The notes under the pieces are model-generated. The model did not search any database and was not told the origin of the DNA. It saw only the letters and a list, made by a program, of their open reading frames with translations. From Forficula auricularia (taxonomy: Eukaryota; Arthropoda; Insecta; Dermaptera; Forficulidae): a stretch of DNA of 64,000 nucleotides. This document shows positions 13,606 through 58,630 of this stretch, piece by piece. The DNA lies in NCBI GenBank assembly GCA_024734495.1, contig JALMQS010000828.1:3149101-3213100 (forward strand), given 5' to 3'. The translations under genes were made by a program, and so were the position numbers. Each line of letters opens with the position of its first letter. Position 1 is the first letter of the stretch.

Positions 13606-14590
13606 AGATCTGAGTTTTGAGATAGTTTAGGCCAGAACACATAAAACAGTGGCGTCGCGAGGGAGGGAGGGGACAAGGGGGTCCATCATACCCCAGGCGC
13701 CACTCGCAGAGGGGCGCGCCAAATGGTCTCCAAGACAAACAAGATTTTCCGGAAATTTTCAATTGTTATTTTGATCGATTTCTGGGAAATATATTTTAAA
13801 TTAATAATCATTGTAACATGATTAATTATTTCGTTTCTTGATTTGTCAGATAAATTATGTTATAAATATAATATTTGGAGTAAATCAATCAAAAATCTTC
13901 ATAAACTGTATGTTTTTAGAACAATTATACAAATATGTAAAATAAATATTATCTTTTTAGTTATTATTAGATTATAGTATGTCCAATTTTGTCACTGACA
14001 CAGATACATTTCCGAATCCAATCCTATACTTCATTTTTTAACTAGATTTTTTGTCTCAAATTTAAAGCCTATACTGAGCCAGTGTCCATATTTATCCCGA
14101 AAAACAGAACAATATTTTGTAGAACAGGCTTCCCAAACTTTTTCATACGGCGCCCCCCTTTTTGATATCATGAATTGCTCACGCCCCCCCCCCCCATGAT
14201 AAAAAAAATAATGTGATTATATTTTTATTTAACAAGTAAACCAAAATATAAAATAAAATAAAAAAATATTAATTTGACTCTGAATGTTTTCCAGTGATTC
14301 TTAATTCACATGAGTGCAGGTAGTGTATATTACGACATACTTACCTTGAATAGATATCCGAATTCTTTCAATAATTTCTCGTCAACTAATTTTCTTATTT
14401 CCGTTTCCAATTAGATTAACATAAGTTGTACATCATGTTCAAATTAATTATTAAATATACATTCATTAAAATTTTTTACATTGTTTAAAGTTAGAATATA
14501 TATATAGAATTGTTTTTTATTTAGGCGTAATTTTCTTTAAGTAAATAACCCTGTGTGTTTGTGAGAGAGTGCCTGTGAAATTACTGAACT
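13606..14590. other. Intergenic, MITE ends, no gene
   Basis: Contains GC-rich transposon-end-like sequences (CAGTGGCGTCGCGAGGG near 13651; a C-run near 14170-14195) in otherwise AT-rich DNA. No exon was recognised. The final 100 bases lead into a possible transcription start for the FAS-like gene. Confidence 0.4.
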
Positions 14591-14893: not shown

Positions 14894-14993
14894 NNNNNNN
14901 NNNNNNNNNNNNNNNNNNNNNNNNNNNNNNNNNNNNNNNNNNNNNNNNNNNNNNNNNNNNNNNNNNNNNNNNNNNNNNNNNNNNNNNNNNNNN
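14894..14993. other. Assembly gap (100 N)
   Basis: Exactly 100 N, the usual placeholder for a gap of unknown length. It lies just upstream of the first visible coding exon of the FAS-like gene and is the likely home of the missing N-terminal ketosynthase exons. Confidence 0.98.
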
Positions 14994-16675: not shown

Positions 16676-16912
16676 ATTCGGGATGCTGACGAGTTGAACG
16701 CTATCGAAGAATTCTTCGTCAAGACCAATAGAAGAACTCGGCCTCTGCATGTGGGTGCAGTGAACTCAATCATTGGTCATACAGGGCCTTCCAGCAACTT
16801 CTGCAGCCTTGCCAAGGTGTTGATCGCAATGCAGGCGGGCAAAATACCGCCCAATATGTATTTTGAGGAGCCCTCACCTCTCATTGGAGGCTTTCAAAAC
16901 GGTTCCCTCAAG
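16676..16912 (+). CDS. Exon 1 visible: ketosynthase C-terminal part
   Basis: 79 codons, phase 0 at both ends. It begins DADELNAI, equal to the FAS 'DPEEANGI' region that follows the EAHGTGT box, then GAVNSIIGHTGPSSN. In active KS domains this box reads G(S/T)VKSNxGHxEPAS. The catalytic His is kept but the Lys four residues into the box is Asn. The following AKVLIAM and IPPNMYFEEPSP match the family well. Confidence 0.9.
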
Positions 16913-19900
16913 GTAAATTGCTTTGCTCTATTAAAGTTAGAAGTAAAAATTTCCGGAAAAACCAGGATTTATTAACTAGCTTTAACTCTAAATATTAAAT
17001 TTCCATTGTTTTTTTGTTTTGTTTTTTTAATACCATTTTAAGTTGTCTTTTCTAAAGTCAATTGGAGAAAATCACGATATATAAGGAATCTATAAAGTGG
17101 TTGACCTCTGCTTGAAGCAAATAAACATATTTTAAAATACGACGAAAATAAATATGTACCATATATATAAATTTTGTTTTGTTAGAGACTATGTATAGTT
17201 TCGAAGGTTTGAGCTTCATCATTATTTATTAGAAATGTTTCATCTATTATTTCACTTGGGTTCAAATACCCGATTGGATATATAGTAAGTAAATTCATTT
17301 TTTTTTATTATAGCAAGATAGTCAATTAAAAAAAAATATTTCTATTTAAAAAGACTGACGATTAAGGTCAAACTTTCGAAACTATAGTCTTCAACAATAA
17401 ATTAAATTGAAAAGTTTTTGTTTTGCCGAGAGTAGCAGAGTTGTTGATTCACAAAGAGAAACAAAGCGGTTGTCCTCTGCTTGATGCAGATAAATATACA
17501 CACATATATATTGAAATTATATATCTGTATATATATTATTTATTTGTTTGAGACTATAGTTACGAGACTTGGTCTTCATCATCAGTCTTTTTTAATTCTA
17601 AATATTATTTTTCATGGGGTCAATACCGTATGGATATTGAAATTTTTCGATCTTTACTTAGTTGGGAGACAGTTAAAATTAAAAAAAAATTAATTTTAAC
17701 TGGCTCCCAGCTAAGTAAAGATCGAAAATTTTCAATATCCATACGGTATTGATCCCATGAAAAATAATATTTATAATTAAAAAAGACTGATGATGAAGAC
17801 CAAGTCTTCGAAACTATATTCTCAAACAAATAAATAATATATATACAGAAATATAATTTCGATATATATGTGTTTATGTTTATTTGAATCAAGCAGATCA
17901 TCATCATCATCACCTCTTTGTTTCTCTTTATAAATAAATTAAATATAATATACAAATTAAATATATATAGTATGTGCTTTGACCAAGCAAAAGAGAACCT
18001 CATTGATTTCTTTTTATAAATCAACAACTCTGATAGTCTCGGCAATACAAAATATTTTCAAAAGATAGAATTAATAATGACATGTAATGTAATAGTGAAT
18101 TCATCCCCCCTGACATATATCATATATATATAGCAGAAAGTTATCTAGAAAACAAACTCTATTCTCCCATAAGAATAATACATTTATTTAAATATTGGAG
18201 AAAATCATAGGTGCTAGAACACGAGGAAGGAAAACATACTAATAATGGGTTTGTTTACCCTTTTCTCCCCAAGCAGTTGCTAAAAGAAATTAGCGGATTA
18301 TTTTACACGTAATTATTAATTCTATATTTTTCCAAGAGATGTCACACCTATCGTGATTTTCGTCAATAACTGTTGATTATCTAATTTTTTAAATAATTTT
18401 AAAGACACTTATAGATCGACCAAGGAACTACTTCTAGACTGAAACTAACAAGGATTCTTGTATTTGAAACTTGCAATTATATTTACTTAGTCATAATGTA
18501 ATTTTGAACAATTTAATAAAAAGATCCAATAATAAAAGCAAGTTGCCCGGAAATAGATGCTTGCCTTAAATATTTGCTTTTATGTCATATTTATAAATTA
18601 ATAATTTAAAAATGATCAATATTTCAGGTGGTTACAGAGACCATGGATTGGAAGGGCGGAATTGTAGCAATTAACGGAGTGGGTCTAGGAAGTGAATATT
18701 CACACATTATTGTGAAATCGCACGGAATGGGAGGTCCTAAAGAAGTCCTTCCGCCAGCTGACGGACTACCAAGATTGATGCTTGTTTCTGGACGATCAGA
18801 AGAGGGACTGCAAAAGCTAGTAGCAAAGGTACAAAATACTTACCTAGATTGCTTATTCATTTTGTTCTCGTCCATAATTTTATATAGGTATATTCGTAAT
18901 TCGCTTTATACTTATAAGATAAATTCAAGGAAAGTCGGCTGCAAAATACTGTATAGTTTTTTTTAACGAAAATGATGAGAGAAGGAGTTACACCAAAAAG
19001 GTGTATCCCCTAAAAGCCTGGGTTGACCCCTCCACCGTGAAAAGAAGAAGAAGAGGGAATTTTATGCCCTGGACAGGGGTCGAAGGTATCTGTGTATACG
19101 GGTCTTAAAGAGCTGAAGGTTATAAGCCGCGGGAAAGATGGTGGCAGGAGCGAGTTCCAGTCTCTGGAGGTCATAGGGATAAACGATTTAGCGAAAGCGC
19201 TTGTTCGATTTTTATCCAATTTGACAGCGAAGGGGTGCTTAGCGTGTTTCGCGTGTTTCTCGTAAAGAGAGCTTTAGGGGGGATAAATGATTTCAGCTCG
19301 ACTGAACAGACACTATCATCTGTAGTACAGAAAGAGAATGCTTGTAGGCACCCCTCCACAGATGAGAGCCATATTCGAGACAGGGACGAATTTGAGCCTT
19401 ATACAGTGTAAGAAGTTGACTGGGAGTATAATAGCGTTTAGACCTAAATAGGAGACCAAGCTTGCGCGCTGCAGCATTAGCCCTGGTTGAGATATGGTCA
19501 TTCCATGAAAGGTCAGTCCCTAGAATTACGCCTAGCATTGAAATTTTATCCCTAAATTCCAGTGAGTTTGAATCGAATGATATGTTTGTGAGGTTTCTGC
19601 GACGTCAGAAATATTTATTGGACAGCCTGCCTAGAAATCATGACAAAAGACATTTACTGGGGATTTCCTGACTTTTTGGCCGTGTCGCAAAAAATATTAT
19701 ATGAATATTAGCTATAAGTGTACAAAGCAGTTATAACGAAAAGTTGTATAAATAGAGAGGTATTAGTGTTTATTATAGTGTTCTTTTGAATACTCTCATA
19801 TATAGTTTTGACGATTAAAGTCAATAATCTCCCCTAGAAACACGCTCAACATCCCTGCTTTAATATTGGTTTAGTTTTTTATAGCAATGGTATAACAATG

Positions 19901-22900: not shown

Positions 22901-25900
22901 TTTTCGATTTTCTTCATTTTTTGTCATTTTTTAGTATCCATCAAAAAACTCTTCCGGTAAATTTTGAAATTTTTTGATCTCCTTTTTAAAAGATATCGAA
23001 TTTTGAAGGAAAAAAACGCTCTTTTTTCGGTTTTTTCTCTCAAAACATCTTCAGAAAAGGTCCAAAAAAATGAAGGAAAAAACGCTCTTTTTTCGGTATT
23101 TTGCTCAAAAAACTTCTTCAGAAAAGGTCCAAAAAATGAAGGAAATCAAAAATTAAAATTTTTCAAGCCGTCCGATTTGGCGTGGAATGCCCACATATTT
23201 AGTATTCGGACAAGTGCAATTGATTGTAGCTTGTAAACTAAAAAAGATACAAACTTGAAATTTACAAGTTACGTGTATATAGTTTCCACAAAATCAAAAA
23301 TCCAATCAAGTAGTACTATCAAATAGGATTAATATTTTGGGATGAGGTTGAATTTCCTTGAATGTAGAGAAAATTTTTATTGAACATCGTTTCTACTTTT
23401 TCAGAATATAAAAAGATAAATCAAATATAGAATGATATTTTATAATAATAATTACGTTACTTTCAAATTGAAATAACAGTTTAAGATTTATTGTTTTGGT
23501 CAACATTTGTTCATAGATAGATAAGATACCAGTAGTGGATGCCGAGTTTGTTCGACTCTTTCACGATGTGTACAATGTCAAAATCCCGAACCATCTCTAC
23601 CGCTCCTACACCATTATTGGGACGAAGAAAGGCGATACAGATCCACCTGCTAGAGAAGTTGAGGTAACCACTACTTGTAGCTATGTCTACCTCCATTATT
23701 TCTCTACCTGGTCTCTTTTTTCTTTCTCTGTTTAGCGTTGCGATGGTCTACAGAGACCCATTTGGTTCGTCTTCTCCGGAATGGGCAGCCAATGGCCCAC
23801 CATGGCTTCCCATTTAATGCAGTTACCCATTTTTGCAGAGACAATAGAAATATGCCATAATATTCTTCTACCAAAAGGAGTTGATTTAAAACATATTATC
23901 ACTACCGATGATGCTACCATTTTTGATAACATTCTTCATTCTTTTGTCGGAATAGCAGCAATTCAGGTAAATACAAATATTTTATTTAAATTTGAGTTAA
24001 ATTAATAAGGGGAATCAATGAGGTTGTCCTCTACTTGATGGAAATAAACATGTTTACTTGCATCAAGTAGAAGACAACTTCATTGATTTCCATTTATGAA
24101 CCAAACTCTGCTACTCTGGGCAAAACAAAAACTTTTCAATTAAATTAATAAGTATTAATAATAATAAGATCTTGAATAAACATAAATAATGGGGGGTCGG
24201 GTAGGCTAGGGGTTAGCGTGTCAGCCTGCTAACCAAGTGGACCCGGGTAGGAATCTGACTCGAGCCATCCGGCTAAAACCTGACCCGGGGTAGAGACATA
24301 TTAAAAAAAAATAATAATTAGTATCGTAAATTCGGCTTATGGCTAGAGAGGCCGAGAAGCTAAAAAAAATAATATAAATAAAGATGAATATTAGAAAAAA
24401 CAGTCGATTTCTGATTTTTTGTTAATTGAATTTTGTTGTTTAAAATTTCGATTTTTCTTGATTGGACCCTTGATGTAAAATAAATATAAGGGCCACACAA
24501 AAGGAACAATGGACCAAACTAGACCGCGGGTTGAACATAACTGCTTTATATTTTTGTGACATTTGACCCTGAAATATTTTGACTCGCTGTCACGAGATTC
24601 TATGGGACTTTTGAGCTAACATACAAAATGTAAAAACAAAGAATTACACAAGTTTATAGCTCATTCCGAGGTTTAGCTCTTTTTTCACCTTATTTGACTC
24701 GACTATTAATCAATTCATAAAAATATAATGTTGTTTTTAACCGCCGGATAAAATTTTTCAACCTACTTAATTGGGAATCTTATATTTTCTAAATAAAACA
24801 TTAATTATTTTTTCAGATGGCCTTGGTTGATGTACTCCGAGCTTTGGAAATTGTTCCCGACGGCATAATCGGTCACTCTGTCGGTGAACTCGGCTGTGCT
24901 TATGCTGATGGCTGCTTTACCAGAGAGCAGATGATTTTGTCTGCCTACAGCCGAGGAAAAGCCTCAATTGAGGTTGAGCTAATCCAGGGAATGATGGCTG
25001 CCATCGGTAAAGTCACTTAATTCATTAATATTTTAAAATTAAAAGATATTTTATATAAGTTCAAAAATAATAATTAAATATATCCAGTGGATTTTAATAT
25101 AATTTCACTTATGATAAGATTTAAAATAAGTTCACACTTTAAAGTAGAAGTAAATTCAATTTTCGGTAAAATTTAACTAAATAAAGCTTAGTCTCCATAA
25201 TAAATAAATAAATAAAAGTAGAGATAATCAAACTTTTTTTAAATAAACGCGTTATTGGCTTTAGGCTACGTTTTGTCTTAACTTTATTGAGATTTCTTCA
25301 GGTTGCATAGACATACGAGGGGAATTCAAATATAAACGAGCCTTTTAATTCTGAGGATTAGAAATTGTTTCGGAGATAGGCGGAGCATCTGGAAGGGTTG
25401 GAGGGATCCCCTCTAGACCGACTGATTTCTTTAGTTGTCTTCACAAGACCGATCAGTTGCGCAACGCATCATAATAAAGTTTTTAACGAACGAAGGCTTT
25501 AAAACCAGACTAAATTCAGGACCGAATGCGGGCACAGTTCGGGGGGAATGCACACTACATCCTGAGTCGAAAAGAGTCAGTATGGAGTGGAGAGCAAAAG
25601 GGGGGGCCAGGACCATCAAAAGTCAAAACTCGCTTGTCAGCCGGGAAGGTGATGTCAACGGTTTTTTGGGACTCTCAAGGATACTCCTTGATTTTCTCCA
25701 TTATCGTCAATAAATTATCACAATAAACGCTGCCTACTACTGTGACCTTCTTGACCCGGTTCCAGCTGCATATCGGTCAAAAAGGCGCCGTCAGCCCATC
25801 CGAGACGTCCTACTCCTGGATAACAATGGATGACCCCACACTGCAACCCTAACAACCCAAAAATTGGCTGAAATGCATTGGTCTACACTTGACCACCTTC

Positions 25901-46900: not shown

Positions 46901-49900
46901 AATAAAATGGTGGATAGATGGTAAAATAAATGTTTCCGGACATGTTTACTTATATGAACTGTTTTCTTTATTTTGACCCATATAATCACCCCCTGAATTA
47001 TATTCCACTCATTACAGATACGGCCTGTATAAAAAACTAATTATAATAATAAACTTTTTGTGATTGTTTTTTATAAAGAAGTGTATTAATTTTATAAAAA
47101 TTAATATACCTACCCTTATGTTTCAAATCAAGACATTTGATCAAAAATGTATTTTTCAAAATTATATGTCTTAAATTCTCATAAAAAATCCCCAATATTT
47201 TTGTTTCAACATTTTAATTTTGCAATTTAATAATTTTAATCTTTTAAACGATATTTTTTGGCTTCGTAAACTATAATTCATTTAGGTATATCTAGTGTGA
47301 TAATATCTTAAGTGTTAGTAGTATTACTGCAGGTCGGATTATAGCCGGTCAAATATTATTCTACCTCTTGAACTTGCCTCCCGCTTTAACACACTCATCA
47401 AGATTTCAGTGTTATAAGTTTATAACAGTAACGCTACGTGCTCAGCTAATCCGACTTTCCTTCTATTATAGAATTTTGTATTCGAATTTCCACTTAGTTC
47501 TACCGAGTAGATATTCTGAAAAATTTGTACGCATTTCATTTTTTTAGCTCTTGAAAAATGTTCATCCTCCTTGAAAATTTAATCAAAATAGATCGTATTT
47601 TTTTTAATTCAAAAGTAAAAAATATATATTATTTCTAAAGCGAGAGAAAATATTAATATCGAATATGAAATTAAAAAAAAAAAAAAATAAAATTAAATTA
47701 TAATCATACATTTAAAAATGAATACAAATTAAATAAAATTTTAAGTGAAATCTTGTCACGGCCGAATAAATGAACTTGCCTTTGCACAGGCAGCCCAGTT
47801 TGAGTACCGCTCCCGGTATGGGATCGTAAAAAAAAGTTTTTTACGATTTCATTATTATTTCGTATTTATATTAGTAGATAAATTTATTTAGAAACATACC
47901 TGATGTAAATAAATTTAGTTTGGCCACTTTATAGATCAACGACCGGTTATGAATGTTTAATTTATTTGCCAGCCACTGATTGACTCTATATATGGCAAAA
48001 TTATCGTTTGTGTTTTGGAATTCTCGCGATAATTCCTTTGATGTTTGTCTGCTGTTTAGCTTCCCGGATGGATTACGCACTTGATCTCGCTGAATGGCTC
48101 AATGAGAGAGGAGTTCGCTATCTCTTCATTGCAGCATATGACAACAACCACTCAGCCTCGCTCACCTCTAACCTTCAATACCGACTGGCCGCCTTGACTC
48201 GCAAATACGGCTCGCAAATTGTTTTAATTCCATCGAAATCGAGAACCGGATGGACCACAGCTCAAGAGATGGTTAATCTATGTCAAACAACCGCGCCATT
48301 TGCTAATATTTTCCTAGTACAATTAGTAAGTAATCCGTAATCTCAAATTGGCCGCTCCTCGTTTGTACATGTTCATCATCTGTTTTTCTGTTCCAGGATG
48401 GAGCGAGTGATTTAGTGCAATCCCTTGATTCACTCACCCGAAATAAGAACAAAGTAGATACTTTTGCAGCACTTCAATGTTGGAACGTTCAGAATCTTTG
48501 TTTAGAGAGGCAACAATTGAGTCTTTCGGCTGTTTCGGTTACCCTTCGAGATAGCATTAAAAGCGAGGTAAATTAAGGGCCTCATTTAATGCTTCTATTA
48601 ATCCCTGATAAAAAATAGTGGGCATTTTTTTAATTTGCCATATAATAACAACTTTACAAACTGACAGGCTGATTGCATTTAAGTTTTTTTTCGGATTGAA
48701 CAGACTCTATTACCTATAGTTTATTCTATTTCTTCTCGATTTAAGTTTTAATGGCTTGTCTTGTTCTAGCTGTAAATTTCTTTTGAACCTTTCTGCTCCA
48801 TGTTGGATTTTAATTTCCAACTCCTTTCATAATGTGAAAGATCATGGGTCACACTAGATTTATGGTTGAATAATCCATAATAGGTGACTCAATTGAAGAA
48901 GCAAACGAAAATTATTTTCCTTTTAGTTCATAGTCTCAGATGTTTGTGGTTCTCTTGGGCTGATAAATGATTCATAGGTATTCAAAAATTCAACATTTAT
49001 AGAACAAGATACTTTTTCTTTAATTAGGCAAAATAAAACATTAAAAAGACGAGGTTTCAAGATTTGCCGCCTCAAAAAAGCTATTGGACGATATGGTCGT
49101 CGCGCCGCCGCGCCGTTCAGAAGGATACTAATTTGTGGGTCCCATCCTCATAGCTCTCGCAAGGGGTCCAAGTTCACCTCAGGGTCATATTTTTTAAGGG
49201 GGTTTGTTAGAAAAAAATGCGTAGGGTGACTAACTTTTTCCACTTCATAAAAAACACATACTTATTTCATAATAAGGGGCCCGCTTCAGATTTTGGACCT
49301 CGGGACCGAAATTTCGTATGGGGGCTTTGCCCATCCTCCCTCTTATTATTCTATTTCTTTATGAGGTATTATTTAAATACATGTATGGTTCCAGTTAGAG
49401 ACTGAGTCTGTTTTGAAAAATTTTCTTCCGGAAATGTTAAGCCCAGTAACAAGTAATCAACCTGTCGAAATACGAAAGTATACATTTTCATTATTTTATT
49501 TGTTTCTTTTTTGTTTTTTAATAAATTTTGAGCAAATACGAAGTTTAGCACTGCAACTATGTTTAAATCTCATTCCTAATGTGTGCATGTCTTCATTCTA
49601 GTTCTGGCATGTTCTGGGCTCCCTCGATCGGATCCTTTCCTTTGAGTCGGCAGCAATGCTTTCGGTCACCCGGTTCAAAGTCACCAGAATCAAAGGCAAT
49701 TCTGCTGCGATGGCAGAACAACGTCTTCAACTATTCTTGCCGAATATGGAAAAGCTGGAAGCCCTTGGAAAAGAAGTTTCAACGGTATTAAAATTACGCG
49801 GTATGTATCAGATCCTATATCAAAAATCATTATTTAATTCTACAAACATTTATACCTCAAACTTGGCTCAGCAAATACCAATTCAACCTGAGTTTACTGT

Positions 49901-52900
49901 TCTCGTTGCTTTCCCTTGTAGTATATGGTTCTAGAATTTTTTCAGAGGTAAACATTTTTCTAACTGAAACGCTAATAAAAATTGATCTCTCTAGCCTTTA
50001 CACCTAAAGCGCCTCTATATCAAGAGGAAATCGTTATTAATAAAATAAATTATTACTAAAATAATTAACCCGAAGATTTGAGTATCTATTTTTTTAAAAA
50101 TAGATGGATTTTTTTCAAAAATACAACTCATAGTATAAACAAAATATATCAATAAAGAATTTAAATTTTAAGGTAAAAAATCTAAGATTTTAATAGAAAT
50201 ATTTTTACAGTGCATATTAGAGGCGTTTTTCCTTTGATATACAATGTAAAAATATTTCTACTAAAATCTTAGATTTTTGAACTTAAAATTTAAATTCTTT
50301 CTTGACAAATTATTAATATGTACATTGATAGAGATTTTCTTTAGGAGACGGACTGGTATAAATATGCAATTGGATGTTGATGAAAGCAGTCCACGGTGGT
50401 TGTAAAAAAATAAGACTATAGAGGTTTTATTATTTTACATTTATTTGTTAAACCGACGTTTCGGTGATTTATTCTCTCCTTCTTCAGGGTAACAAAAAGT
50501 CAATGAAAGTAGTTCAAAACATAATTACTTTCTGTCTCCTTTGACAATGCCAAAAAAACATTATAAAATTTTTTTCATCTCGAATAGAAAATAAAGCAAC
50601 AAGCCATTAATATGTACATATTATTATTTATATTTAAAGATTCAATTTCCATTTTCTGTACTTATTTTCACATTTTATCGTAAATTATTCGATTGCTACA
50701 ATAAATAATTATTAGAATAAATAAAACGAGTTCGAATATAGTTCCGAGATAGCGACTGATGGTTGGTGAATAATAAACGAAGTTAAGGTCTCAGAGAGGG
50801 GGCTAGTCGGTAGCGTGACAGCGAGCTAACCAGGAGACCCGGGTTCGAATCCGACTCGAGGCAGCCAGCCAAAATCTGACCCCCGGGGGTAGAGACAAAT
50901 TTTAAAAAATATATCTAGTATCGTAATTAGGCTTATGGCTAGAAGGGCCGAAAAGCCAAAAAAAAAAAAAAAAAAAAAAAGGTCTCAGAGAACAATTGAT
51001 GATAGCTAGCTACCCCACTTCAACGCTTAATGGATTATATGTATTTATACTTTGTTAAATATTTTCCGCCTGGAAGAGGAGCATATCTGAATTAAATATG
51101 AATGTACAACAATACTTATGAAATTTAGTTAACTCTCCACGAAGATATAAAGACAAATTTAGTTAAAGGCTATATTATTATCTATATTAAAATTTTAGTG
51201 TTCAAATAGAAACAGCATCAACAACGTAGTGGAATTGACGATACATTTGAAACTTGTTGAAATAAAACAACAAACATACCATAAAATCACTAAAATTTGC
51301 TGAAAGCTATGCCGAGTCTTGATAAAGTTTTCAATTTTTCCTCCAATATATATTTTAAAAATTGTTTTCTTTTTTTTACTTATTTAATAAATTATTTTTA
51401 TATTAAATTGTAAGATATATCATCCTGTTTTCACCTCTTGGTGTAATAACAGCGCTTTTTTCTCCAATACTAATCTTCAATTCTTCGAAGCTCAAGTCTA
51501 TACTCGATTAAACTTCATGAATATTCTCTCCTTTTTCAGGAATCCAAAATAGCTGTTACAACTTTTACAAGATGATACATTGAAATTTACTTGTTTTATT
51601 ACGACAAATAAATAATAATTATTATTTTAATTTCGATCTTTTTGTTTCAGGTGATACACCCAAGAGTGCCGATCTCATTGAAGTCGCGACGCGAAGCATA
51701 GGTATTGGCTATGCCAGAGAAGTCCCTGCAATATTCATGGTCCCAGGCCTGAATGGATCATCGGCTGACACAGTGCGATCGATAGCCAAGATGCTTCTCT
51801 ACCCAATCATGGTTCTGCAGATGCCCATCCATCCTGGAACTCTGGAAGAAATTGCTGATAATTTAGTTCAAGTGAGTTGATCTATATCAATGCTTATTTT
51901 ATCCGTAAATCACTATTCAAATGTTATTTTATCTTCATTGTAGCAAATCCTCAACGTTCAAGATGTAGGACCTTATAATTTATGCGGTGTGGCGTGGGGA
52001 GGTCCCCTTGCTCTCGAAACAACTCGACGCCTCGAACTTCTCGGACACAAAGTGAAAGTGTTCCTCTATGACGGAACTCCAGATACCGTCCTGGAAAATA
52101 TCAATCTCCTTGGCGATTCGACAAAGAGGGAAGTCAATGTTATTTGCCGATGTCTAGAAATATCATCTCTCCGAGTGCGTTTTTGCTTTCTTTATTATTT
52201 GTGATTAGTATTTCTCTCCTCTATCTTTCAATTCTAATCGAATTTTCTTATTCTGATCAGGTTCGGGAAGAGTTATCAGCGTTGGGCGATTGGTCCTCGA
52301 GGGTGAAACGAGCTCTTGAAGAGATACCAGTGGCCCAAGATAAACGAGATTTACTCCAATACGGCCTCGAAACGTTGCGCTGTCGTCTAGAGCTTATGAG
52401 CAAATTCCCGTCCGAATATGATCCTCTTTTAAATTGTTTTATCCATCTTGTGAGACCATTTTACTTCGAAGACGACGAGTACTCCGGTTTGGAAAGAGTA
52501 CGTAGATCTGCCTTATTAAATTTTCACATGGGAAAATATAGCTATACCTACAAAATACTTATATTAAAAGCATGTGATGAAACTAAAATTAAAGCCATGA
52601 TTGAATTAAGATTCTAGTAGCGTCACGCGACATTCACTTCCCACCTGGGTTTTTGATTCAAATAAGTCAATGAATATTGTTAAAAATCCTTAGAGGTGTG
52701 ACATCTTCTCGAGATATATAAAATTAATAGCTATATATACAATTATGAGAATTCACCCCTCCCGACTTCTATTGGCATCTTTTCTCTCATAAGAATAAAA
52801 ATTTCACTTTCTCGTTAATAAGCTTCTCTAGAGGAAGCTCGAGACGACTGCAGGCTAGTATTCAGCCGCTGGCCTGAAGTACGCTGGTTCTAGACTGAGT

Positions 52901-53840
52901 CTCGGGAGATATTTGCAGCTGCCTCCTCTTGGAAAGCAATGGCAACCTACCAAGATTATAATTGAAGGAGACAATAAAGAGTGTGTCTTCTGCAGGATTT
53001 TATAAATTTTATTTATTTATAACAAGTCTTTGCCCTCGAAACTATAGTCTCGTTATAAATAAATAAAATTTATAATTCCAGCAGAAGACACAATCTTTTA
53101 TTGCCTCCTTCAATATATAAAAATTCTGCTACCCTCGGGAAAAAACTTTCAATTTAAGATTATAATTCCCTAGTAACTTCTCTAAACTAGCCGTTCGGAA
53201 CCGGCGCGGCGTTAAAAAGTAGGTCCCGTATATCTGTGTAAAAGCAGCTAAACACACTCAGCACAGGTATATGTGGACAGGAGCCGAAACTTCAGGGAGA
53301 CCAAATATGGCACTTAAAGTAGCTCATTTTCGCCAATAAAGCTATTAATGAATATCTATATATAAAAAATCGCAAATTTTCAATTTCTAAAGATTTTCAA
53401 AGAACCCTAAACAACTCTTCGTTCGGATTAAAATTCTAAATATTTGATAAGCACACTTAGATTTAAAAAATCGATTTTGTGGAAATTGCAAAAAAACAAA
53501 AAACTGTCTTATCTTTCGCAGATTTAAAGCAAATTCTAACTTTATTTAAATTTAATTGAATATTAATTTCTGCTGCTTAACGTTGTCGAAATTCGCAGCT
53601 AGTATATATATGTACCTATAGGTATAGGTATGGTTATTTTCATCTTATAACTTCATCGATTTCTCTTTATAATCTCATTCTAATATTTAATTTTTTTTTC
53701 AGCATACGGATACAAGTGTGGACATTCAACCGGAGAGCTCACCGAACACTTTATCTGAATTAATTAATGTAGAGGCGACAGTCGAAATGGGTCAGCCCAA
53801 ATATAGAATCCCACTAGTAAAGAAATATCTTAAAGTTTAG
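16676..53840 (+). CDS. Fatty acid synthase-like multidomain protein, mostly non-catalytic (30 exons, 5'-incomplete)
   Basis: Exons are 16676-16912, 18628-18828, 23517-23663, 23736-23966, 24817-25006, 27605-27834, 29137-29441, 30676-30820, 30889-31005, 32499-32607, 32676-32978, 35418-35598, 37138-37285, 37438-37596, 38939-39184, 39273-39463, 40590-40784, 40865-40961, 41110-41295, 41994-42173, 42270-42462, 44479-44659, 45726-45865, 48060-48325, 48397-48567, 49602-49800, 51651-51871, 51944-52174, 52261-52497 and 53703-53840. All junctions are GT-AG, phases agree throughout, and the sum is 5,775 nt (1,924 codons plus TAG). Domain order is that of animal cytosolic FAS: KS (C-terminal part), MAT, DH, pseudo-ME region, ER, KR, TE. 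Normal FAS is ~2,400 residues. Here the KR is short and the ACP is absent. Seen residues argue against fatty-acid synthesis: KS Lys to Asn, DH His to Thr, ER and KR glycine loops lost, TE Ser to Ala. MAT Ser, His and Arg remain. I infer a pseudoenzyme or scaffold paralogue. The alternative is an early-stage pseudogene that has not yet gained stops. Confidence 0.88.
16913..18627 (+). repeat. Intron holding a long palindrome (17410-18045)
   Basis: Arms of ~230 bp are inverted around 17689-17692, sharing 'cagctaagtaaagatcga' type sequence. Both arms contain CTGATGA plus a GAAGAC/GTCTTC stem. A diverged relative lies at 17090-17400. Related shorter foldbacks occur at 24005-24150 and 52960-53160. 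Confidence 0.8.
18628..18828 (+). CDS. Exon 2: end of ketosynthase and linker
   Basis: 67 codons, phase 0. Follows the family sequence 'WxGGxVGINSFGFGGxNAHVIL', but the glycine-rich turn reads AINGVGLGSEYSHIIV, so GFGGTN is replaced. It ends with the RLMLVSGRSEEGLQKLVAK linker typical of the KS-MAT junction. Confidence 0.88.
18965..19600 (-). mobile_element. Jockey/CR1-like retrotransposon fragment (subfamily A)
   Basis: On the minus strand 19538-19293 gives MLGVILGTDLSWNDHIS and RPCLEYGSHLWRGA. A later part (19219-19010) gives SFIPMTSRDWNSLLP. These match the copy at 12640-13605 in order. The 3' end near 18975 shares the 'agagaaggag...aggtgtatcccctaaa' tail. It is internally deleted and frameshifted, inside the intron of the FAS-like gene and antisense to it. 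Confidence 0.85.
20497..20900. repeat. Inverted-repeat element carrying a hammerhead-like motif
   Basis: Arms of ~110 bp (20519-20633 and 20785-20900) are complementary and contain 'ggcagcccagaggtagtgag'. The interior carries the folded motif listed at 20744-20798. The left border 'gacggactggtagaaattt' recurs near 50346 in a related element. No protein is encoded. Confidence 0.75.
20744..20798 (+). ncRNA. Hammerhead-ribozyme-like motif
   Basis: Order is: stem I 5' strand CCTTTGAAACC (20744-20754), CTGAAGA, one extra A, stem II GGAGG/CCTCC, GAAAC, GTC, stem I 3' strand GGTTTGAAAGG (20788-20798). Stem I pairs over 11 positions with one mismatch. This is the type I hammerhead order with the CUGANGA and GAAA boxes. 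Weak points are an unpaired A after CUGANGA and a stem III with no loop (AC/GU), which could only form between two molecules. Activity is unproven. Confidence 0.4.
21240..22130. repeat. Nested inverted-repeat elements
   Basis: An outer inverted pair ('aggcacagaccttgtaaac' near 21258; reverse complement near 22097) encloses an inner pair (21324-21475 and 21785-21930, with 'aagatctaccacattttgaa') and a short 'ataaagccaagttt' hairpin (21938-22050). The core repeats the 'ggttagtttttgcattttt' phrase. This suggests one MITE inserted into another within a FAS intron. Confidence 0.75.
22131..22860. other. Intronic sequence, hammerhead-like degenerate motif, no exon
   Basis: AT-rich. Near 22407-22450 the minus strand carries CCGAAGA, a GTCG/CGAC stem, GAAAC, GTT and short flanking complements, a decayed relative of the motif at 20744. 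A 100-codon frame at 22500-22676 is not recognisable as protein. Confidence 0.4.
22861..23190. mobile_element. MITE with TIR around GCATTCCACGCCAAATCGGA
   Basis: The left end holds GCATTCCACGCCAAATCGGA and the right end its reverse complement (about 23165-23189). The interior has two direct copies of 'aacgctcttttttcggt'. No transposase is present. It lies in the second FAS intron. Confidence 0.8.
23517..23663 (+). CDS. Exon 3: KS-MAT linker domain
   Basis: 49 codons, phase 0, acceptor TTCATAG|ATAGAT. Contains VVDAEFVRLFHDVY and IPNHLYRSYTIIG, matching the FAS linker sequence 'EFxxLLxDIxxxxIxGHxYRGYxIL'. No catalytic role is known for this segment. Confidence 0.88.
23736..23966 (+). CDS. Exon 4: acyltransferase N-terminal part
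   Basis: 77 codons, phase 0, separated from exon 3 by only 72 bp. RPIWFVFSGMGSQWPTMA is the hallmark start of the FAS malonyl/acyltransferase domain (family: RPVWFVFSGMGSQW). It continues to FVGIAAIQ, which leads into the nucleophile exon. It is among the best-conserved parts of the protein. Confidence 0.93.
24005..24150. repeat. Short foldback
   Basis: The sequence 'tcaatgaggttgtcctctac' and its inverted copy meet at 'aaacatgttt' (about 24046-24055). It belongs to the same family as the palindrome at 17410-18045. Confidence 0.7.
24186..24375 (+). mobile_element. tRNA-derived SINE (family 1)
   Basis: The head has box A-like GGTTAGCGTGTCAGCCTGC and box B-like GGGTAGGAATC. The body contains 'tagtatcgtaaattcggctt' and ends in an A-rich tail. 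A better preserved copy is at 50785-50982. Confidence 0.75.
24817..25006 (+). CDS. Exon 5: acyltransferase nucleophile
   Basis: 63 codons plus 1 nt, phase 0 in and 1 out. VPDGIIGHSVGELGCAYADG carries the GHSxGE nucleophile serine intact. AYSRGKA keeps the Arg that binds the malonyl carboxylate in animal FAS. This is the only catalytic centre of the protein that I can see complete. Confidence 0.93.
25316..26159 (+). mobile_element. Mariner element, internally deleted (DD34D family)
   Basis: Ends CGAGGG...AACGAGCC and GGCTCG...CCCTCG are flanked by TA (25314-25315 and 26160-26161). The decayed coding remnant on + gives SAGKVMSTVFWD, then fragments equivalent to the LLDN..PHTA box (here with stops and frame changes), a segment close to LDHPPYSPDLAPSDFHLF, and SVRWEKCITKKGKYVEK at the end. 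The N-terminal DNA-binding half is missing, so ~845 bp remain of the usual ~1.3 kb. The copy is dead. It sits in the intron between exons 5 and 6. Confidence 0.88.
26301..26520 (+). mobile_element. tRNA-Leu/Ser-like SINE (family 2)
   Basis: Positions 26306-26378 can fold as a degenerate tRNA: the acceptor strands GGGAATC and GAGTCCC pair with one mismatch, the D arm resembles GCCGAGAGCTTAAGAC, a CCT/AGG anticodon stem encloses TCTAAGC, and the T loop is GGTTCGAGTCC. A ~140 bp body follows, ending in ATGATGATGAT. The body and repeat tail show it is a SINE, not a functional tRNA gene. Confidence 0.75.
26521..27604. other. Intronic AT-rich sequence
   Basis: Very AT-rich with a short CA repeat near 27186-27199 followed by 'ccaaaatgggctatagttcc', similar to the tail region of SINE family 3 (39720-39760). 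No exon or RNA gene was recognised. Confidence 0.4.
27605..27834 (+). CDS. Exon 6: acyltransferase C-terminal part
   Basis: 2 nt plus 76 codons. Contains VEVACRNSDSSCTISGP, then VNVSNIAYHSRYI, the equivalent of GMAFHS in FAS, with the catalytic His kept. It completes a MAT domain with Ser, His and Arg all present. Confidence 0.92.
27835..29136. other. Intron: ATT microsatellite and an 81-bp tandem duplication
   Basis: An (ATT)n tract lies at about 28348-28378. A ~81 bp unit containing 'gggatatgttatttgcatac' is repeated head to tail (28861-28941 and 28942-29021) with few differences, so it is recent. No exon was seen. Confidence 0.65.
29137..29441 (+). CDS. Exon 7: MAT-to-DH linker
   Basis: 101 codons plus 2 nt. 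KRSSKWISTSVPKDQWDSE matches the FAS 'RSxRWISTSIPExxW' stretch. AEYHTNNLLSSVLFED matches the 'SAEYHVNNLVSPVLF' segment, and the IEIAPHGLLQAILRR region follows. Well conserved. Confidence 0.92.
29530..29935 (+). mobile_element. Jockey/CR1-like retrotransposon 3' fragment (subfamily B)
   Basis: The + strand carries YYHGRYSDEIKSIIPPKACF (with a small frame change) then SFANTYIPMTSRNWNSLPAS and a 3' UTR ending in poly-A (29919-29933). It is nearly identical in protein to the minus-strand copy at 57640-58390, so both belong to one young subfamily. Confidence 0.88.
30000..30265 (-). mobile_element. RTE-like retrotransposon 3' fragment
   Basis: The minus strand matches the C-terminal end of the longer copy at 34690-35090 ('agactggtttgacgcaacca', 'ttggtcgaaatattttaatc'). 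It is shorter and frameshifted. Confidence 0.75.
30676..30820 (+). CDS. Exon 8: entry to dehydratase
   Basis: 1 nt plus 48 codons. LNPKIENLYPPVNYPVSKGT and LSPYVDWDYTEEW match 'xxNLYPPVxFPVSRGTPMISPLIKWDHSxxW' of FAS. The intron to exon 9 is only 68 bp. Confidence 0.9.
30889..31005 (+). CDS. Exon 9: dehydratase active-site exon, His missing
   Basis: 39 codons, phase 0. In active domains this part reads DHxxDGRxLFPAxGYL with catalytic His in HxxxGxxxxP. Here it is YKGTTYQGAIVYPLASYL: the Gly and Pro of the motif align, but the His position is Thr. No other His lies in the loop. I infer loss of dehydratase activity. Confidence 0.88.
31400..31640. repeat. Dispersed repeat family D, copies 1 and 2
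   Basis: Contains 'ttgacaaaacaattattatc', 'gatgttcacttattagggct' and 'gattacaataccctgtatgg'. A diverged second copy follows at 31985-32215 and a third is at 56820-57085. No coding content. Confidence 0.75.
32499..32607 (+). CDS. Exon 10: dehydratase
   Basis: 36 codons plus 1 nt. YIVWDLLAVLN and MPVVFENVKMHE match 'YLxLVWKTLAxxxxxxxxxxPVVFEDVxFHRAT' of the first hotdog fold. Confidence 0.88.
32676..32978 (+). CDS. Exon 11: dehydratase
   Basis: 2 nt, 100 codons and 1 nt. GWFEISLCDEERIVANGTAR matches the 'GxFEVxExxxLVVSGKI' strand. DIYSLFERRGNTFASSFRAL matches the 'DIYKELRLRGYxYGxxFxGI' region at the start of the second hotdog fold. Confidence 0.9.
32979..33117. other. Intron start, nothing seen
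   Basis: Begins with a consensus GTAAGC donor. No feature recognised before the MITE. Confidence 0.3.
33118..33514. mobile_element. Mariner-type MITE, ~397 bp
   Basis: Terminal inverted repeats TTAGGTTGTTTCAAAAGTTT and its complement AAACTTTTAAAACAACCTAA (one or two mismatches). The internal part contains decayed GC-richer segments reminiscent of a transposase DNA-binding region on the minus strand. It is non-autonomous. Confidence 0.8.
33515..34689. other. Intronic AT-rich sequence
   Basis: No coding exon, RNA gene or clear repeat boundary was recognised. A-rich stretch near 34137-34170. Confidence 0.35.
34690..35098 (-). mobile_element. RTE-like retrotransposon C-terminal fragment
   Basis: Minus strand 35088-34705 gives MYGCETWTIGKAERKRLEAF and MWCYRRIMNIKWMDRITNEE, then RTLWRSLRKRRDQMMGHTLR. 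This is the hallmark C-terminal region of RTE-type reverse transcriptases. Open over 127 codons, 5'-truncated. It lies antisense in the intron between exons 11 and 12. Confidence 0.88.
35418..35598 (+). CDS. Exon 12: second hotdog fold of dehydratase
   Basis: 2 nt, 59 codons and 2 nt. GKVNWNSNWISNMDAWMQV matches 'GxLxWxxNWVxFMDNMLQM'. The catalytic Asp of the DxxxQ motif is present (DAWMQ). Thus the DH has kept its Asp and lost its His. Confidence 0.9.
35805..36375. repeat. Nested foldback elements
   Basis: An outer pair ('gtaggtttcacataaataaa', about 35861; inverted near 36323-36348) encloses an inner pair (36140-36215 and 36222-36300) joined at a short loop. A partial copy of the outer unit also occurs at 63618-63705. 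Stems with GAAATATATC follow a GGG/CCC pairing. Confidence 0.75.
36540..36965. repeat. MITE carrying a 20-bp minisatellite
   Basis: An outer inverted pair ('aaactctttttaaacgttgg', about 36560; reverse complement near 36931-36951) contains an inner hairpin (about 36590-36640 against 36645-36696) and then a tandem array of AAGTACTTGGAAATATTTGG, five to six units with small changes at 36750-36872. Border phrases 'ggaagtaggtgtaca' and 'taggtcgcggttc' recur at 43955-44105 around a shorter, scrambled version. Confidence 0.85.
37138..37285 (+). CDS. Exon 13: end of dehydratase
   Basis: 1 nt plus 49 codons. GNGVELRGLESVPLIVAPK matches 'GGVEIRGLxAxxxxRR' which closes the DH domain in FAS. The ~100-residue helical linker normally following is mostly missing. 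Confidence 0.88.
37438..37596 (+). CDS. Exon 14: pseudo-methyltransferase region, first part
   Basis: 53 codons, phase 0. MLEMYLNIVLANCTKPRLTV matches 'LETALNIVLENxPSLKVKVVE' at the start of the non-catalytic methyltransferase-like domain of animal FAS. This domain is inactive in ordinary FAS too. Confidence 0.85.
37597..38938. other. Intron, no exon seen
   Basis: AT-rich with a possible inverted pair ('atgccaaaaa...' type sequence near 38640-38760 around 'aaaaatgcaatccgg') and a motif at 37960-38030 distantly like the hammerhead-like family. No coding exon was recognised. Confidence 0.4.
38939..39184 (+). CDS. Exon 15: pseudo-methyltransferase/pseudo-ketoreductase region
   Basis: 82 codons, phase 0. 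NILIVSGECKEAYDLLATFP and ETFLLVRTTAG align with 'ADLIVAxNVLxxLxDPxxxLKNLxxxLKPGGFLLLxE'. Conservation is weak, and the call rests on position, phase and the FLLVR strand. Confidence 0.8.
39273..39463 (+). CDS. Exon 16: structural region before ER
   Basis: 63 codons plus 2 nt. Contains GKIYVVAKSLPSQGIIAFIK, like the 'IWLVSEGExxSGIxGLVNCLRxE' stretch of FAS. The 88 bp intron before it and phase matching support it. Confidence 0.82.
39464..40589. mobile_element. Intron with SINE (family 3) at 39715-39915, minus strand
   Basis: On the minus strand a tRNA-like head (GGCTAACGCGCTGAC; box B GGGTTCGATCCTGG, about 39830-39910) is followed by a body and a (TAAA)n tail. Decayed relatives occur at 43775-43965 and 47290-47460. 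The rest of the intron is AT-rich; 40230-40360 shares sequence with 50080-50300. Confidence 0.75.
40590..40784 (+). CDS. Exon 17: structural region into ER
   Basis: 1 nt, 64 codons and 2 nt. LFVNIFYKNDWGSFCRLSLD matches the FAS sequence 'DLVxNVYKDGxWGSYRHLxL'. It is the signature that precedes the enoylreductase. Confidence 0.9.
40865..40961 (+). CDS. Exon 18: ER N-terminal part, altered
   Basis: 1 nt plus 32 codons. FKYVGLNPDDITYVMDQDTE lies where FAS has 'VYYAxLNFRDIMLATGKL'. LN and a D are kept but the RD and the lysine of ATGK are replaced, so the substrate/proton-donor end of the reductase is changed. Confidence 0.85.
41110..41295 (+). CDS. Exon 19: ER
   Basis: 62 codons, phase 0. LEWSGLVDCRQRSIGLAALN and WTIPTKWSFEEAATVPLAYA match 'GxEFSGRxxxGxRVMGxxxxxxLATxxxxxxxxxWxVPxxWTLEEAATVPVVYxTAYYAL'. 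The fold appears kept. Confidence 0.9.
41296..41993. repeat. Intron with ~110 bp tandem duplication
   Basis: A unit starting 'gttaagtcaccttgttccgt' occurs at 41382-41490 and again at 41492-41597 with an internal deletion. A (TA)n run lies at 41872-41885. Confidence 0.7.
41994..42173 (+). CDS. Exon 20: ER nucleotide-binding exon, glycine loop lost
   Basis: 60 codons, phase 0. In ER this exon reads 'GExxLIHSGxGGVGQAAIxIAL'. Here it is KFKLLIHCAANIFSQAAIRI with ALANGNTIYVTV after it. LIH and QAAI still align without gaps, so the replaced S-G-x-G-G-V-G is unambiguous: the NADPH diphosphate loop is gone. Confidence 0.92.
42270..42462 (+). CDS. Exon 21: ER
   Basis: 64 codons plus 1 nt. FDTFEQDVLTITDGKGVNII and LRATFRCLGYMGTYIHVGVM match 'DTSFEQHILxxTxGKGVDLVLNSLxEEKLQASVRCLxxxGRFLEIGKxDL'. 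The NSL is SPV. Otherwise it is well conserved. Confidence 0.92.
42463..44478. repeat. Intron with MITE (43308-43556) and decayed SINE
   Basis: 43308-43556 has ends TTACGCACTGTCGAGTGGTC and the complement GACCAGTCGACAGTGCGTAA with GTCGCCGGCGAC inside each arm. 43775-43965 is a decayed SINE family 3 copy on the minus strand. 43950-44110 is the short relative of the 36.7 kb minisatellite unit. The remainder (42600-43300) is unrecognised. Confidence 0.75.
44479..44659 (+). CDS. Exon 22: ER C-terminal part
   Basis: 2 nt, 59 codons and 2 nt. VRQLMEHGLRTGVVQPLTKK and VFPFENLESAI match 'VxxLVxEGIxSGAVxPLxxTVFxxxxVExAFRYM'. Good match. Confidence 0.9.
44660..45725 (-). mobile_element. Intron with possible solo LTR (44903-45234, minus)
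   Basis: Read on the minus strand, 45234-44903 starts TGTAATAAATAA and ends CACCCTACA, i.e. TG...CA borders, with an AATAAA-containing segment near the 3' end, an overall LTR look of ~332 bp. I see no clear 5-bp target duplication and no internal retroviral-type region, so the call is tentative. The surrounding intron is AT-rich. Confidence 0.35.
45726..45865 (+). CDS. Exon 23: ER-KR junction
   Basis: 1 nt, 46 codons and 1 nt. VKTLVKMPAKPLLGPVSKSQ matches the 'GKVVIKIRxE' end of ER, and then the sequence runs into the KR Rossmann entry (GDVSNLIV for 'xxKSYIITGG'). Confidence 0.82.
45866..48059. other. Long intron; MITE at 46661-46831, decayed SINE at 47290-47460
   Basis: 46661-46831 has ends GGGCGGTCCCAGG and CTGGGACCACCCC with G and C runs. 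47290-47460 is a faint SINE family 3 copy (minus). No exon was seen in the remainder. Confidence 0.55.
48060..48325 (+). CDS. Exon 24: KR N-terminal half, glycine loop lost
   Basis: 2 nt plus 88 codons. Family: 'YIITGGLGGFGLELAxWLIxRGVxKLVLTSRSG'. Here LIVSSRMDYALDLAEWLNER then GVRYLFIAAYDNN. LAEWL and RGVRYL fix the alignment, so TGGLGGFG has become SSRMDYA without indels. The NADPH site is lost. Confidence 0.9.
48397..48567 (+). CDS. Exon 25: KR catalytic region, Ser/Tyr/Asn lost
   Basis: 57 codons, phase 0, 71 bp intron before it. DTFAALQCWNVQNLCLERQQ and LSLSAVSVTLRD align ungapped with '[31 protein letters not shown]'. The Ser positions read Q-C-W-N, the catalytic Tyr is Leu and the Asn is Ala. 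Confidence 0.82.
48568..49601. other. Intron, no exon seen
   Basis: AT-rich. Short GC-richer patch near 49095-49180. No coding or terminal-repeat structure was recognised. Confidence 0.35.
49602..49800 (+). CDS. Exon 26: KR end and remnant where ACP should be
   Basis: 66 codons plus 1 nt. VLGSLDRILSFESAAMLSVT matches 'CLEVLDxFLxQPHPVVSSMVL', which ends the KR. About 45 residues of the KR substrate loop ('GLPGLAxQWGAIGDVG') are missing just before it. After it, only ~35 residues (EKLEALGKEVSTVLKLR and on) precede the TE. There is no DSL phosphopantetheine motif, so no functional ACP. Confidence 0.85.
49801..51650. repeat. Intron with hairpin, hammerhead-like motif and SINE
   Basis: 50152-50310 is a hairpin with arms sharing 'atctaagattttaatagaaa'. 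The element from about 50346 shares its border with 20497. 50785-50982 is SINE family 1: box A GGTAGCGTGACAGCGAGCT, box B GGGTTCGAATCC, body 'tagtatcgtaattaggctta' and an A24 tail. Confidence 0.75.
50445..50495 (-). ncRNA. Hammerhead-ribozyme-like motif, second copy
   Basis: On the minus strand: TTGTTACC, CTGAAGA, extra A, stem GGAGA/TCACC (one mismatch), GAAAC, GTC, then GGTTTAACAA, which pairs with the first strand allowing a two-base gap. It has the same architecture and the same extra A as at 20744. Confidence 0.35.
51651..51871 (+). CDS. Exon 27: thioesterase start
   Basis: 2 nt plus 73 codons. VPAIFMVPGLNGSSADTVRS matches 'xPxFLIHPIEGxxxxFxxLAxxL' of FAS thioesterase, followed by YPIMVLQMPIHPGTLEEIAD for 'xPxYGLQxxxxxPxxSIxxLA'. 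Confidence 0.9.
51944..52174 (+). CDS. Exon 28: thioesterase nucleophile exon, Ser to Ala
   Basis: 77 codons, phase 0. Family: 'GPYRLAGYSFGGxVAFEMAxQLExQ'. Here GPYNLCGVAWGGPLALETTR, so the GxSxG serine is Ala. FLYDGTPD keeps the Asp of 'LFLFDGSPD'. Without the serine the enzyme cannot release acyl chains by the usual mechanism. Confidence 0.93.
52261..52497 (+). CDS. Exon 29: thioesterase lid/helical region
   Basis: 79 codons, phase 0, 86 bp intron before it. Helical sequence with LSALGDWSSRVKRALEEIP and CRLELMSKFPSEYDPLLNCF, in the place of 'ARSFYxKLxAAxxYxPxxKYxGxVxLLRA'. Confidence 0.82.
52498..53702. repeat. Last intron: foldback (52960-53160) and possible SINE
   Basis: 52841-52950 has box-B-like GCTGGTTCTAGACTGAG and may be a tRNA-derived piece. 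52960-53160 is a foldback with 'ttataaataaataaaattta' arms and CGAAACTATAGTC between. No exon. Confidence 0.55.
53703..53840 (+). CDS. Exon 30: C-terminus and stop
   Basis: 45 codons plus TAG. SVDIQPESSPNTLSELINVE lies where active TEs have 'KVxVHxIEGDHRTLLEGxG'; the catalytic His aligns with Pro. It ends with a Lys-rich tail (LVKKYLKV). Confidence 0.82.
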   Translation, partial: HTDTSVDIQPESSPNTLSELINVEATVEMGQPKYRIPLVKKYLKV

Positions 53841-58390: not shown

Positions 58391-58630
58391 TTTGTCCAAT
58401 TCCCTGCTATTCATGTTATAAATTTATTATATGGATCCGAATAATACAACATTTATAAAAAGGGTTTGTTAATATTTCTGAAGCTTTAGTTGGGATGGCG
58501 ATTATTAATTGAAAATTATTTTAATAAATACACGATGTTTAGCACTATTGGGTCTATATCATATTTCTTTAGAATTGGAAACCTAAACGTTGCGAAAAAT
58601 TATTATTTAATTTTAAAATTGTACAATGAT
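58391..58630. other. Short AT-rich spacer
   Basis: Nothing recognised. Confidence 0.3.

What the first reader, a model, noticed from the sequence alone, without database searches (positions are those of the whole stretch)
16676..53840. A complete-looking FAS gene that has lost nearly every catalytic centre but stays open
Thirty exons with matching phases and GT-AG borders give one 1,924-codon frame with animal FAS domain order. Key residues are gone in KS, DH, ER, KR and TE, and the ACP is absent, while MAT keeps Ser, His and Arg. Scattered neutral decay of a ~6 kb coding sequence would be expected to bring stops, frameshifts and broken splice sites, and I find none. That pattern fits a retained pseudo-synthase: a scaffold, regulator or dominant partner of the true FAS, or a malonyl-transfer protein. 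To my knowledge such a globally inactive FAS paralogue is not a described system.
Basis: partly seen in the sequence, partly recalled or inferred. Interest (0 to 1): 0.92.

Follow-up and report, generated by a model that had tools for sequence, protein, structure and literature searches.

The report
Fatty acid synthase keeping only malonyl-transferase
A gene in what looks like an insect genome resembles a worn-out fatty acid synthase that has lost nearly all its working parts except the one that loads the building block, malonate; sister synthases in the same genome have lost just that part, so the two kinds may work together.

Summary
Confirmed, with corrections. The window (from a 1.06-Gb, insect-like genome) holds an intron-rich FAS paralogue at 16676-53840: 31 exons in my model, 1,971 codons, no stop, 30 of 30 GT-AG introns, 14 at the same place and phase as in the intact FAS on C469. 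KS Cys/His are not mutated: the KS N-half is absent from the assembly, which has a 100-N gap at 14894-14993. DH, ER, KR, ACP and TE centres are lost. Against C469, the gene keeps 9 of 10 tabulated MAT sites but 6 of 25 others; three sister FAS genes (C25a, C25b, C163) keep 1-2 of 10 MAT sites but 24-25 of 25 others. MAT is 54% identical to C469 (human 48%), KR 20% (human 59%). In a genome-wide Pfam search only C469, this gene and a mitochondrial MCAT show a sound MAT. Likeliest role: malonyl transferase, possibly in trans for MAT-less synthases. Both odd types were described in 2016 (Finck et al., PMC5039406: cluster III keeps KS and MAT; cluster II can lack MAT); the pairing is my hypothesis. 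No transcripts or sister-species dN/dS were available.

The parts
14894..14993 (.). 100-N assembly gap upstream of exon 1; could hide the KS N-half exons
16676..16912 (+). exon 1: KS C-terminal part (second His kept, Lys to Asn)
   Evidence: its start matches a C469 exon border
18628..18828 (+). exon 2: KS C-terminal end and linker; has a 93% identical relative P0001
23517..23663 (+). exon 3: linker domain
23736..23966 (+). exon 4: MAT, SGMGSQ
24817..25006 (+). exon 5: MAT, GHSVGE Ser and Arg
27605..27834 (+). exon 6: MAT, catalytic His (AYHS)
29137..29441 (+). exon 7: MAT, PHGLLQ
30676..30820 (+). exon 8: post-MAT linker
30913..31005 (+). exon 9: DH start, catalytic His to Thr (border uncertain)
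32499..32607 (+). exon 10: DH
32676..32978 (+). exon 11: DH
35418..35598 (+). exon 12: DH second half, Asp and Gln kept
37138..37285 (+). exon 13: end of DH / pseudo-ME
37438..37596 (+). exon 14: pseudo-ME
38939..39184 (+). exon 15: pseudo-ME/pseudo-KR
39273..39463 (+). exon 16: pseudo-KR (Pfam FAS_pseudo-KR match begins here)
40590..40784 (+). exon 17: pseudo-KR end / ER start
40865..40961 (+). exon 18: ER substrate half, added by hand
41110..41295 (+). exon 19: ER (start moved by hand)
41994..42173 (+). exon 20: ER, nucleotide-loop Gly residues lost
42270..42462 (+). exon 21: ER, Lys lost
44479..44659 (+). exon 22: ER end
45726..45865 (+). exon 23: ER-KR linker, chosen by hand over 47319-47437
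48060..48325 (+). exon 24: KR, Gly-rich loop lost
48397..48567 (+). exon 25: KR, Ser/Tyr/Asn lost
49401..49445 (+). exon 26: KR end (uncertain)
49602..49920 (+). exon 27: KR end and degenerate ACP region without the Ser (borders uncertain)
51651..51871 (+). exon 28: TE
51944..52174 (+). exon 29: TE, Ser to Ala, Asp kept
52261..52497 (+). exon 30: TE (end moved by hand)
53703..53840 (+). exon 31: TE C-terminal end and stop, added by hand; intron position shared with C469

Best explanation
An old duplicate of the animal FAS that is kept as a malonyl(acyl)-CoA transferase in a degenerate FAS body. Shown by sequence: every catalytic centre except MAT is lost or absent, MAT is complete and slow-evolving, and the dead domains have still changed conservatively. 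Inferred: the protein folds, its MAT loads malonyl onto an ACP that is not its own (its own has lost the Ser), and the likeliest takers are the FAS paralogues of the same genome (C25 cluster, C163) whose own MAT is degenerate while the other motifs are intact. It would then be half of a two-part synthase, a trans-MAT.
For: Sites equal to C469 (counted from its table): window 9 of 10 MAT and 6 of 25 others; C25a 2 and 24; C25b 2 and 25; C163 1 and 24. MAT identity to C469: window 54%, human 48%, C25a/C25b/C163 23-25%; KR: 20%, 59%, 54-57%. On a fixed tree the window branch is 1.5 times C469's in MAT (5-95% of 40 bootstraps: 1.1-2.3) but 4-17 times in KS-C, DH, ER, KR and TE; the C25+C163 stem is 1.30 in MAT against 0.31-0.52 in KS-C, DH, ER, KR, but 1.21 in TE. 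Pfam Acyl_transf_1: 235.9 bits for the window protein, 259.1 for the C469 MAT, 35.4 for the C25a MAT region. PF00698 over the genome gives 11 matches: C469 2, window 4, C46 1 (mitochondrial MCAT, my reading), C25 4 at 35 bits (only best candidates are scored).
Against: No transcript, protein or assay. C469's own MAT could serve the C25-type enzymes through mixed dimers. C25a, C25b and C163 keep the MAT Ser, and C25a/C25b the His683 equivalent, so a changed activity is not excluded. The KS N-half, and with it much of the known dimer face (recalled), is missing, so docking is unclear. Of the five C25/C163 genes read, only C25a is free of frame breaks; C25b has 2, C25c 1, C25d 1, C163 5. The window MAT has Phe682 changed to Tyr.
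Confidence: 0.45

Rival explanations
1. A cluster III insect FAS in the sense of Finck et al. 2016 with its own KS-MAT chemistry: the KS N-half sits in the assembly gap, and KS plus MAT do something other than fatty acid synthesis.
For: Cluster III members keep KS and MAT and lose PP (PMC5039406); a 100-N gap lies 1.7 kb upstream of exon 1.
Against: No KS N-half on C736 in a genome-wide PF00109 search (0 of 16 matches) nor in 46 kb upstream (apart from the gap); the KS remnant has lost its Lys and has a branch 6.5 times C469's.
Confidence: 0.25
2. A non-catalytic scaffold or regulator that pairs with a true FAS; MAT is kept for its fold only.
For: In DH, ER, KR and TE the replacements are more conservative than in each of 60 simulations that forbid only stops.
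Against: MAT keeps the catalytic residues themselves, which a fold-only role does not need; the KS N-half is absent.
Confidence: 0.15
3. A pseudogene that lost its promoter and KS exons only recently.
For: 5-prime truncation as assembled; protein start not found; no transcript evidence was available; two alternative alignments placed one frameshift each.
Against: Decay must be very recent: under an assumed neutral model 0.5% substitutions leave 25% of copies stop-free and 1% leaves 0 of 40; a relative's exon 2 differs at 4 of 67 residues without a frame change while the adjoining intron differs at 8 of 36 with two frame changes (the second count is mine).
Confidence: 0.12

Closest known systems
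Insect FAS cluster III (Finck et al. 2016, Sci Rep 6:33695, PMC5039406; Chorthippus cluster III, and Tribolium TC000238 of similar structure)
   Same: MAT kept; PP/ACP lost; DH, ER, KR, TE modified or lost; a FAS duplicate
   Different: those keep KS; here the KS N-half is absent from the assembly. That paper derives cluster III from cluster II, whereas this gene's MAT groups with C469. Its main text holds no 'in trans', 'heterodimer' or 'complement'.
Insect FAS cluster II without MAT (same paper; Tribolium TC15337)
   Same: the C25 and C163 genes resemble this: nearly all motifs but MAT
   Different: the window gene is the mirror image; the C25 MAT is degenerate rather than deleted (C163's is also shortened)
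Arthropod animal FAS-like PKS, AFPK (Lin et al. 2024, PMC10764717)
   Same: FAS-related paralogues tied to hydrocarbons and pheromones
   Different: surveyed on full-length KS domains only, so this gene as assembled would not enter that survey
trans-AT polyketide synthases of bacteria (recalled)
   Same: working logic: a free acyltransferase loads synthases that lack one
   Different: no sequence membership; bacterial, with a discrete AT

Membership tests
Animal type I FAS | KS-MAT-DH-ER-KR-ACP-TE order with homologous sequence | tested here: inconclusive
   order kept, 14 of the 19 C469 introns in the shared part at the same place and phase; KS N-half missing; no Pfam match for DH, KR or ACP
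Animal type I FAS | all catalytic centres present | tested here: not met
   6 of 25 non-MAT sites as in C469
Insect FAS cluster III | MAT kept, PP lost, DH/ER/KR/TE modified | tested here: met
   against the description
Insect FAS cluster III | KS kept | tested here: inconclusive
   N-half not found; assembly gap
AFPK | full-length KS placed in an AFPK clade | not testable with these tools
   KS N-half absent; the paper's reference set was not at hand
trans-acting malonyl transferase | complete MAT active site without a working ACP of its own | tested here: met
trans-acting malonyl transferase | transfer to another protein's ACP | not testable with these tools
   needs biochemistry

The most novel reading that the evidence does not exclude
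Insects run a split fatty acid synthase: MAT-less synthases (cluster II type) are charged in trans by a degenerate synthase that keeps only its MAT (cluster III type), an animal counterpart of trans-AT assembly lines. It would explain why both aberrant types are kept side by side.
Probability: 0.28. Interest if true: 0.85.

Novelty: new variant of a known kind. Interest (0 to 1): 0.56.

Why it matters
[quoted passage not shown] A genome in which MAT-dead synthases and a MAT-only synthase show mirror-image losses turns that into a testable two-part enzyme, relevant to insect hydrocarbons and pheromones.

Tried and rejected
KS N-half elsewhere: PF00109 gave 16 matches in the genome, none on C736; the weak C32 match lies in a thiolase gene (my reading); C763 is OXSM-like (my reading). 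A second functional copy: the protein search showed on C137 only a piece of exon 7, and DNA comparison with 30 kb there a 220-bp copy of exon 7's 3' part and intron, beside repeats shared with the window. Selection against stops alone (a nonsense-mediated-decay argument): not enough, because a null that forbids only stops gives less conservative replacements (0 of 60 reach the observed mean in MAT, DH, ER, KR, TE) and lower first- and third-position G+C in all five, second-position G+C being equal in ER; but in KR and TE the total alignment score is below all 60 simulations, the null having no gaps, and identity was matched only roughly (KR 0.25 observed, 0.29 null). Phylogeny: with topology free the window gene joins C469 in MAT and ER, C25/C163 in KS-C, DH and TE, human in KR, so its origin is open; C25/C163 have few introns, so shared introns do not settle it. 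Trees held six sequences; Drosophila, C25c and C25d were left out. In the KR bootstrap the upper bound of the ratio is meaningless because C469's branch reached zero in some replicates.

Not obtained: second-half protein search of the genome and KS N-half protein search, machine busy. Sister-species homologues: not sent, database off. I submitted no structure job, since the joined protein is not read letter for letter from the DNA.

Full report
What was checked. The window is C736:3149101-3213100 of an unnamed 1.06-Gb genome; I take it for an insect from C469's closeness to Drosophila FAS (59% in DH, human 40%), the organism is not given. The intact FAS of the same genome is C469:9947084-9933079, minus strand, 23 exons, 2,381 residues in my model, all catalytic motifs present. 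Aligned to the window with a spliced aligner that may pay for stops and frameshifts, it gives a 29-exon forward chain with no lesion, score 1856; five controls score 62-75. Two other settings gave one frameshift each: at 48332 with a stiffer intron penalty, and at 41108 in a lax run over 104 kb with 55 exons, many spurious. After adding exons 18 and 31, exchanging exon 23 and moving three borders by hand, the model has 31 exons, 1,971 codons and a stop, matching phases, 30/30 GT donors and 31/31 AG acceptors; mean donor and acceptor scores (4.24, 2.25) are close to those of C469 (4.13, 2.16) and exceed the average GT or AG (-1.63, -0.76); the same scores steered the choice of sites in both genes. 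Of 19 C469 introns in the shared part, 14 coincide in place and phase.

What is lost. tabulates 35 sites (names and numbers recalled from mammalian FAS). KS Cys and first His are not there at all, because the N-half of KS was not found in the window or 30 kb upstream; KS Lys is Asn, second His kept; DH His is Thr, with Gly, Pro, Asp and Gln kept; ER Gly loop and Lys lost; KR Gly loop, Ser, Tyr, Asn lost; ACP Ser lost; TE Ser and His lost, Asp kept. Pfam at E up to 0.1 finds 7 families: Acyl_transf_1 (235.9 bits), two KS C-terminal models, FAS_pseudo-KR, part of Thioesterase, and two ADH models (one under, one over its cut-off); none for KS N-terminal, DH, KR or ACP. The 100-N gap at 14894-14993 leaves open whether KS exons exist in the animal.

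What is kept. Of 10 MAT sites, 9 equal C469 and 8 equal human FAS; Phe682 is Tyr and position 582 is Val as in C469. Identity to C469 is 54% in MAT over 314 columns, human 48%; in KR 20% (77% of columns aligned) against 59%. Fixed-tree branch lengths, window/C469: MAT 0.50/0.32, KS-C 0.98/0.15, DH 1.76/0.39, ER 2.16/0.24, KR 2.73/0.17, TE 2.35/0.59. In 40 column bootstraps per domain the 5-95% range of the ratio is 1.10-2.31 for MAT, and the lower bounds elsewhere are 2.66 or more.

Is it decaying? Under an assumed neutral model (AT-biased, started from C469's 2,063 codons) 1% substitutions bring 3.25 stops on average and 0 of 40 copies are clean; 0.5% bring 1.40 and 25% are clean. A null that forbids only stops, at roughly matched identity, does not reach the observed conservativeness of replacements in MAT, DH, ER, KR or TE (0 of 60 each), and its first- and third-position G+C lie below the observed. 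Against this, total alignment scores in KR and TE lie below the null, which has no gaps. So the dead domains behaved as protein-coding, folded sequence for most of their history (inference). For the recent past there is only P0001, a 111-residue ENA protein: exon 2 differs at 4 of 67 residues without a frame change, the adjoining intron at 8 of 36 with two (the second count is mine from the printed alignment). That is small and without synonymous sites.

The mirror image. C25a, C25b and C163 equal C469 at 24, 25 and 24 of 25 non-MAT sites (the exceptions are a TE Asp to Glu in C25a and a DH Gly to Gln in C163) but at 2, 2 and 1 of 10 MAT sites: Arg is Val, Leu, Ile; Gln, the His before the Ser and PHxLLQ are gone; the Ser stays. 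C25c (read from the linker on) and C25d (read from KS to DH) have the same kind of MAT. C25a reads through without lesion; C25b has 2, C25c 1, C25d 1 and C163 5 frame breaks. The shared stem of C25 and C163 is long in MAT (1.30) and TE (1.21), short in KS-C, DH, ER and KR (0.31-0.52). Without the Arg that holds the malonyl carboxylate (recalled), such synthases should need malonyl from elsewhere. Genome-wide, PF00698 gives 11 matches: C469 2, the window 4, C46 1, C25 4 at 35 bits (best candidates only, so a lower bound). C46 has a leader-like N-terminus and reads as mitochondrial MCAT (my reading). That leaves two cytosolic-type MATs in sight, C469 and the window gene.

Literature. Finck et al. 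2016 (PMC5039406; section 8, part 1 of the Discussion and passages read) define clusters I to III of insect FAS. Loss of MAT in cluster II arose in at least three orders; cluster III lacks PP and is modified in DH, ER, KR, TE but not in KS and MAT; the Tribolium gene of similar structure (TC000238) is lethal on RNAi, and MAT-less TC15337 gives 60% and 40% mortality. They leave open whether MAT-less forms work, and derive cluster III from cluster II. Lin et al. 2024 (PMC10764717; abstract, passages and part 4 of section 3 read) analysed KS domains only. Two further papers were seen as passages (PMC8027674; PMC9235097). My four answered searches (one search found nothing, eight others timed out) listed no paper that visibly joins the two aberrant types; I opened four papers in all, so this is a weak negative.

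Conclusion. It is a MAT-keeping aberrant FAS of a known insect kind, with a missing or hidden KS N-half. The new part is the mirror-image degeneration within one genome, which makes trans-loading by this protein a concrete, testable idea that I put at about 0.28.

Noticed in passing
16676-53840: Third-position G+C of this gene is 0.45 overall (0.39-0.51 by domain), against 0.26-0.30 in C469, C25a, C25b and C163 and 0.33 in the stretch that holds its introns. Unexplained.
   Followed up: partly
29287-29505 and L026:5771-5987 (C137:22005771-22005987): A 220-bp stretch of exon 7 and its intron recurs at 89% identity on another contig, a few kb from repeat DNA that also matches the window.
   Followed up: partly
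L032-L035, L039, L040, L042, L043 (C25:8370000-8650000): A cluster of at least four MAT-degenerate FAS genes, C25a with about 1,900 codons in one exon.
   Followed up: yes
L036-L038 (C163:1020001-1050000): A related FAS gene with five frame breaks in its long last exon; pseudogene or assembly errors.
   Followed up: no
59358-59870, minus: Open frame of 170 residues with ankyrin repeats.
   Followed up: partly
6719-7782, minus: Tc1/mariner-like transposase in two overlapping frames; the larger one matches PF01498.
   Followed up: partly
12829-13626 minus; 29532-29984 plus; 57711-58410 minus: Open frames that look like pieces of a non-LTR reverse-transcriptase element (my reading); the first matches RVT_1 below its cut-off, the others recur on C137 at 93-94%; one lies in the intron just after exon 7.
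   Followed up: partly
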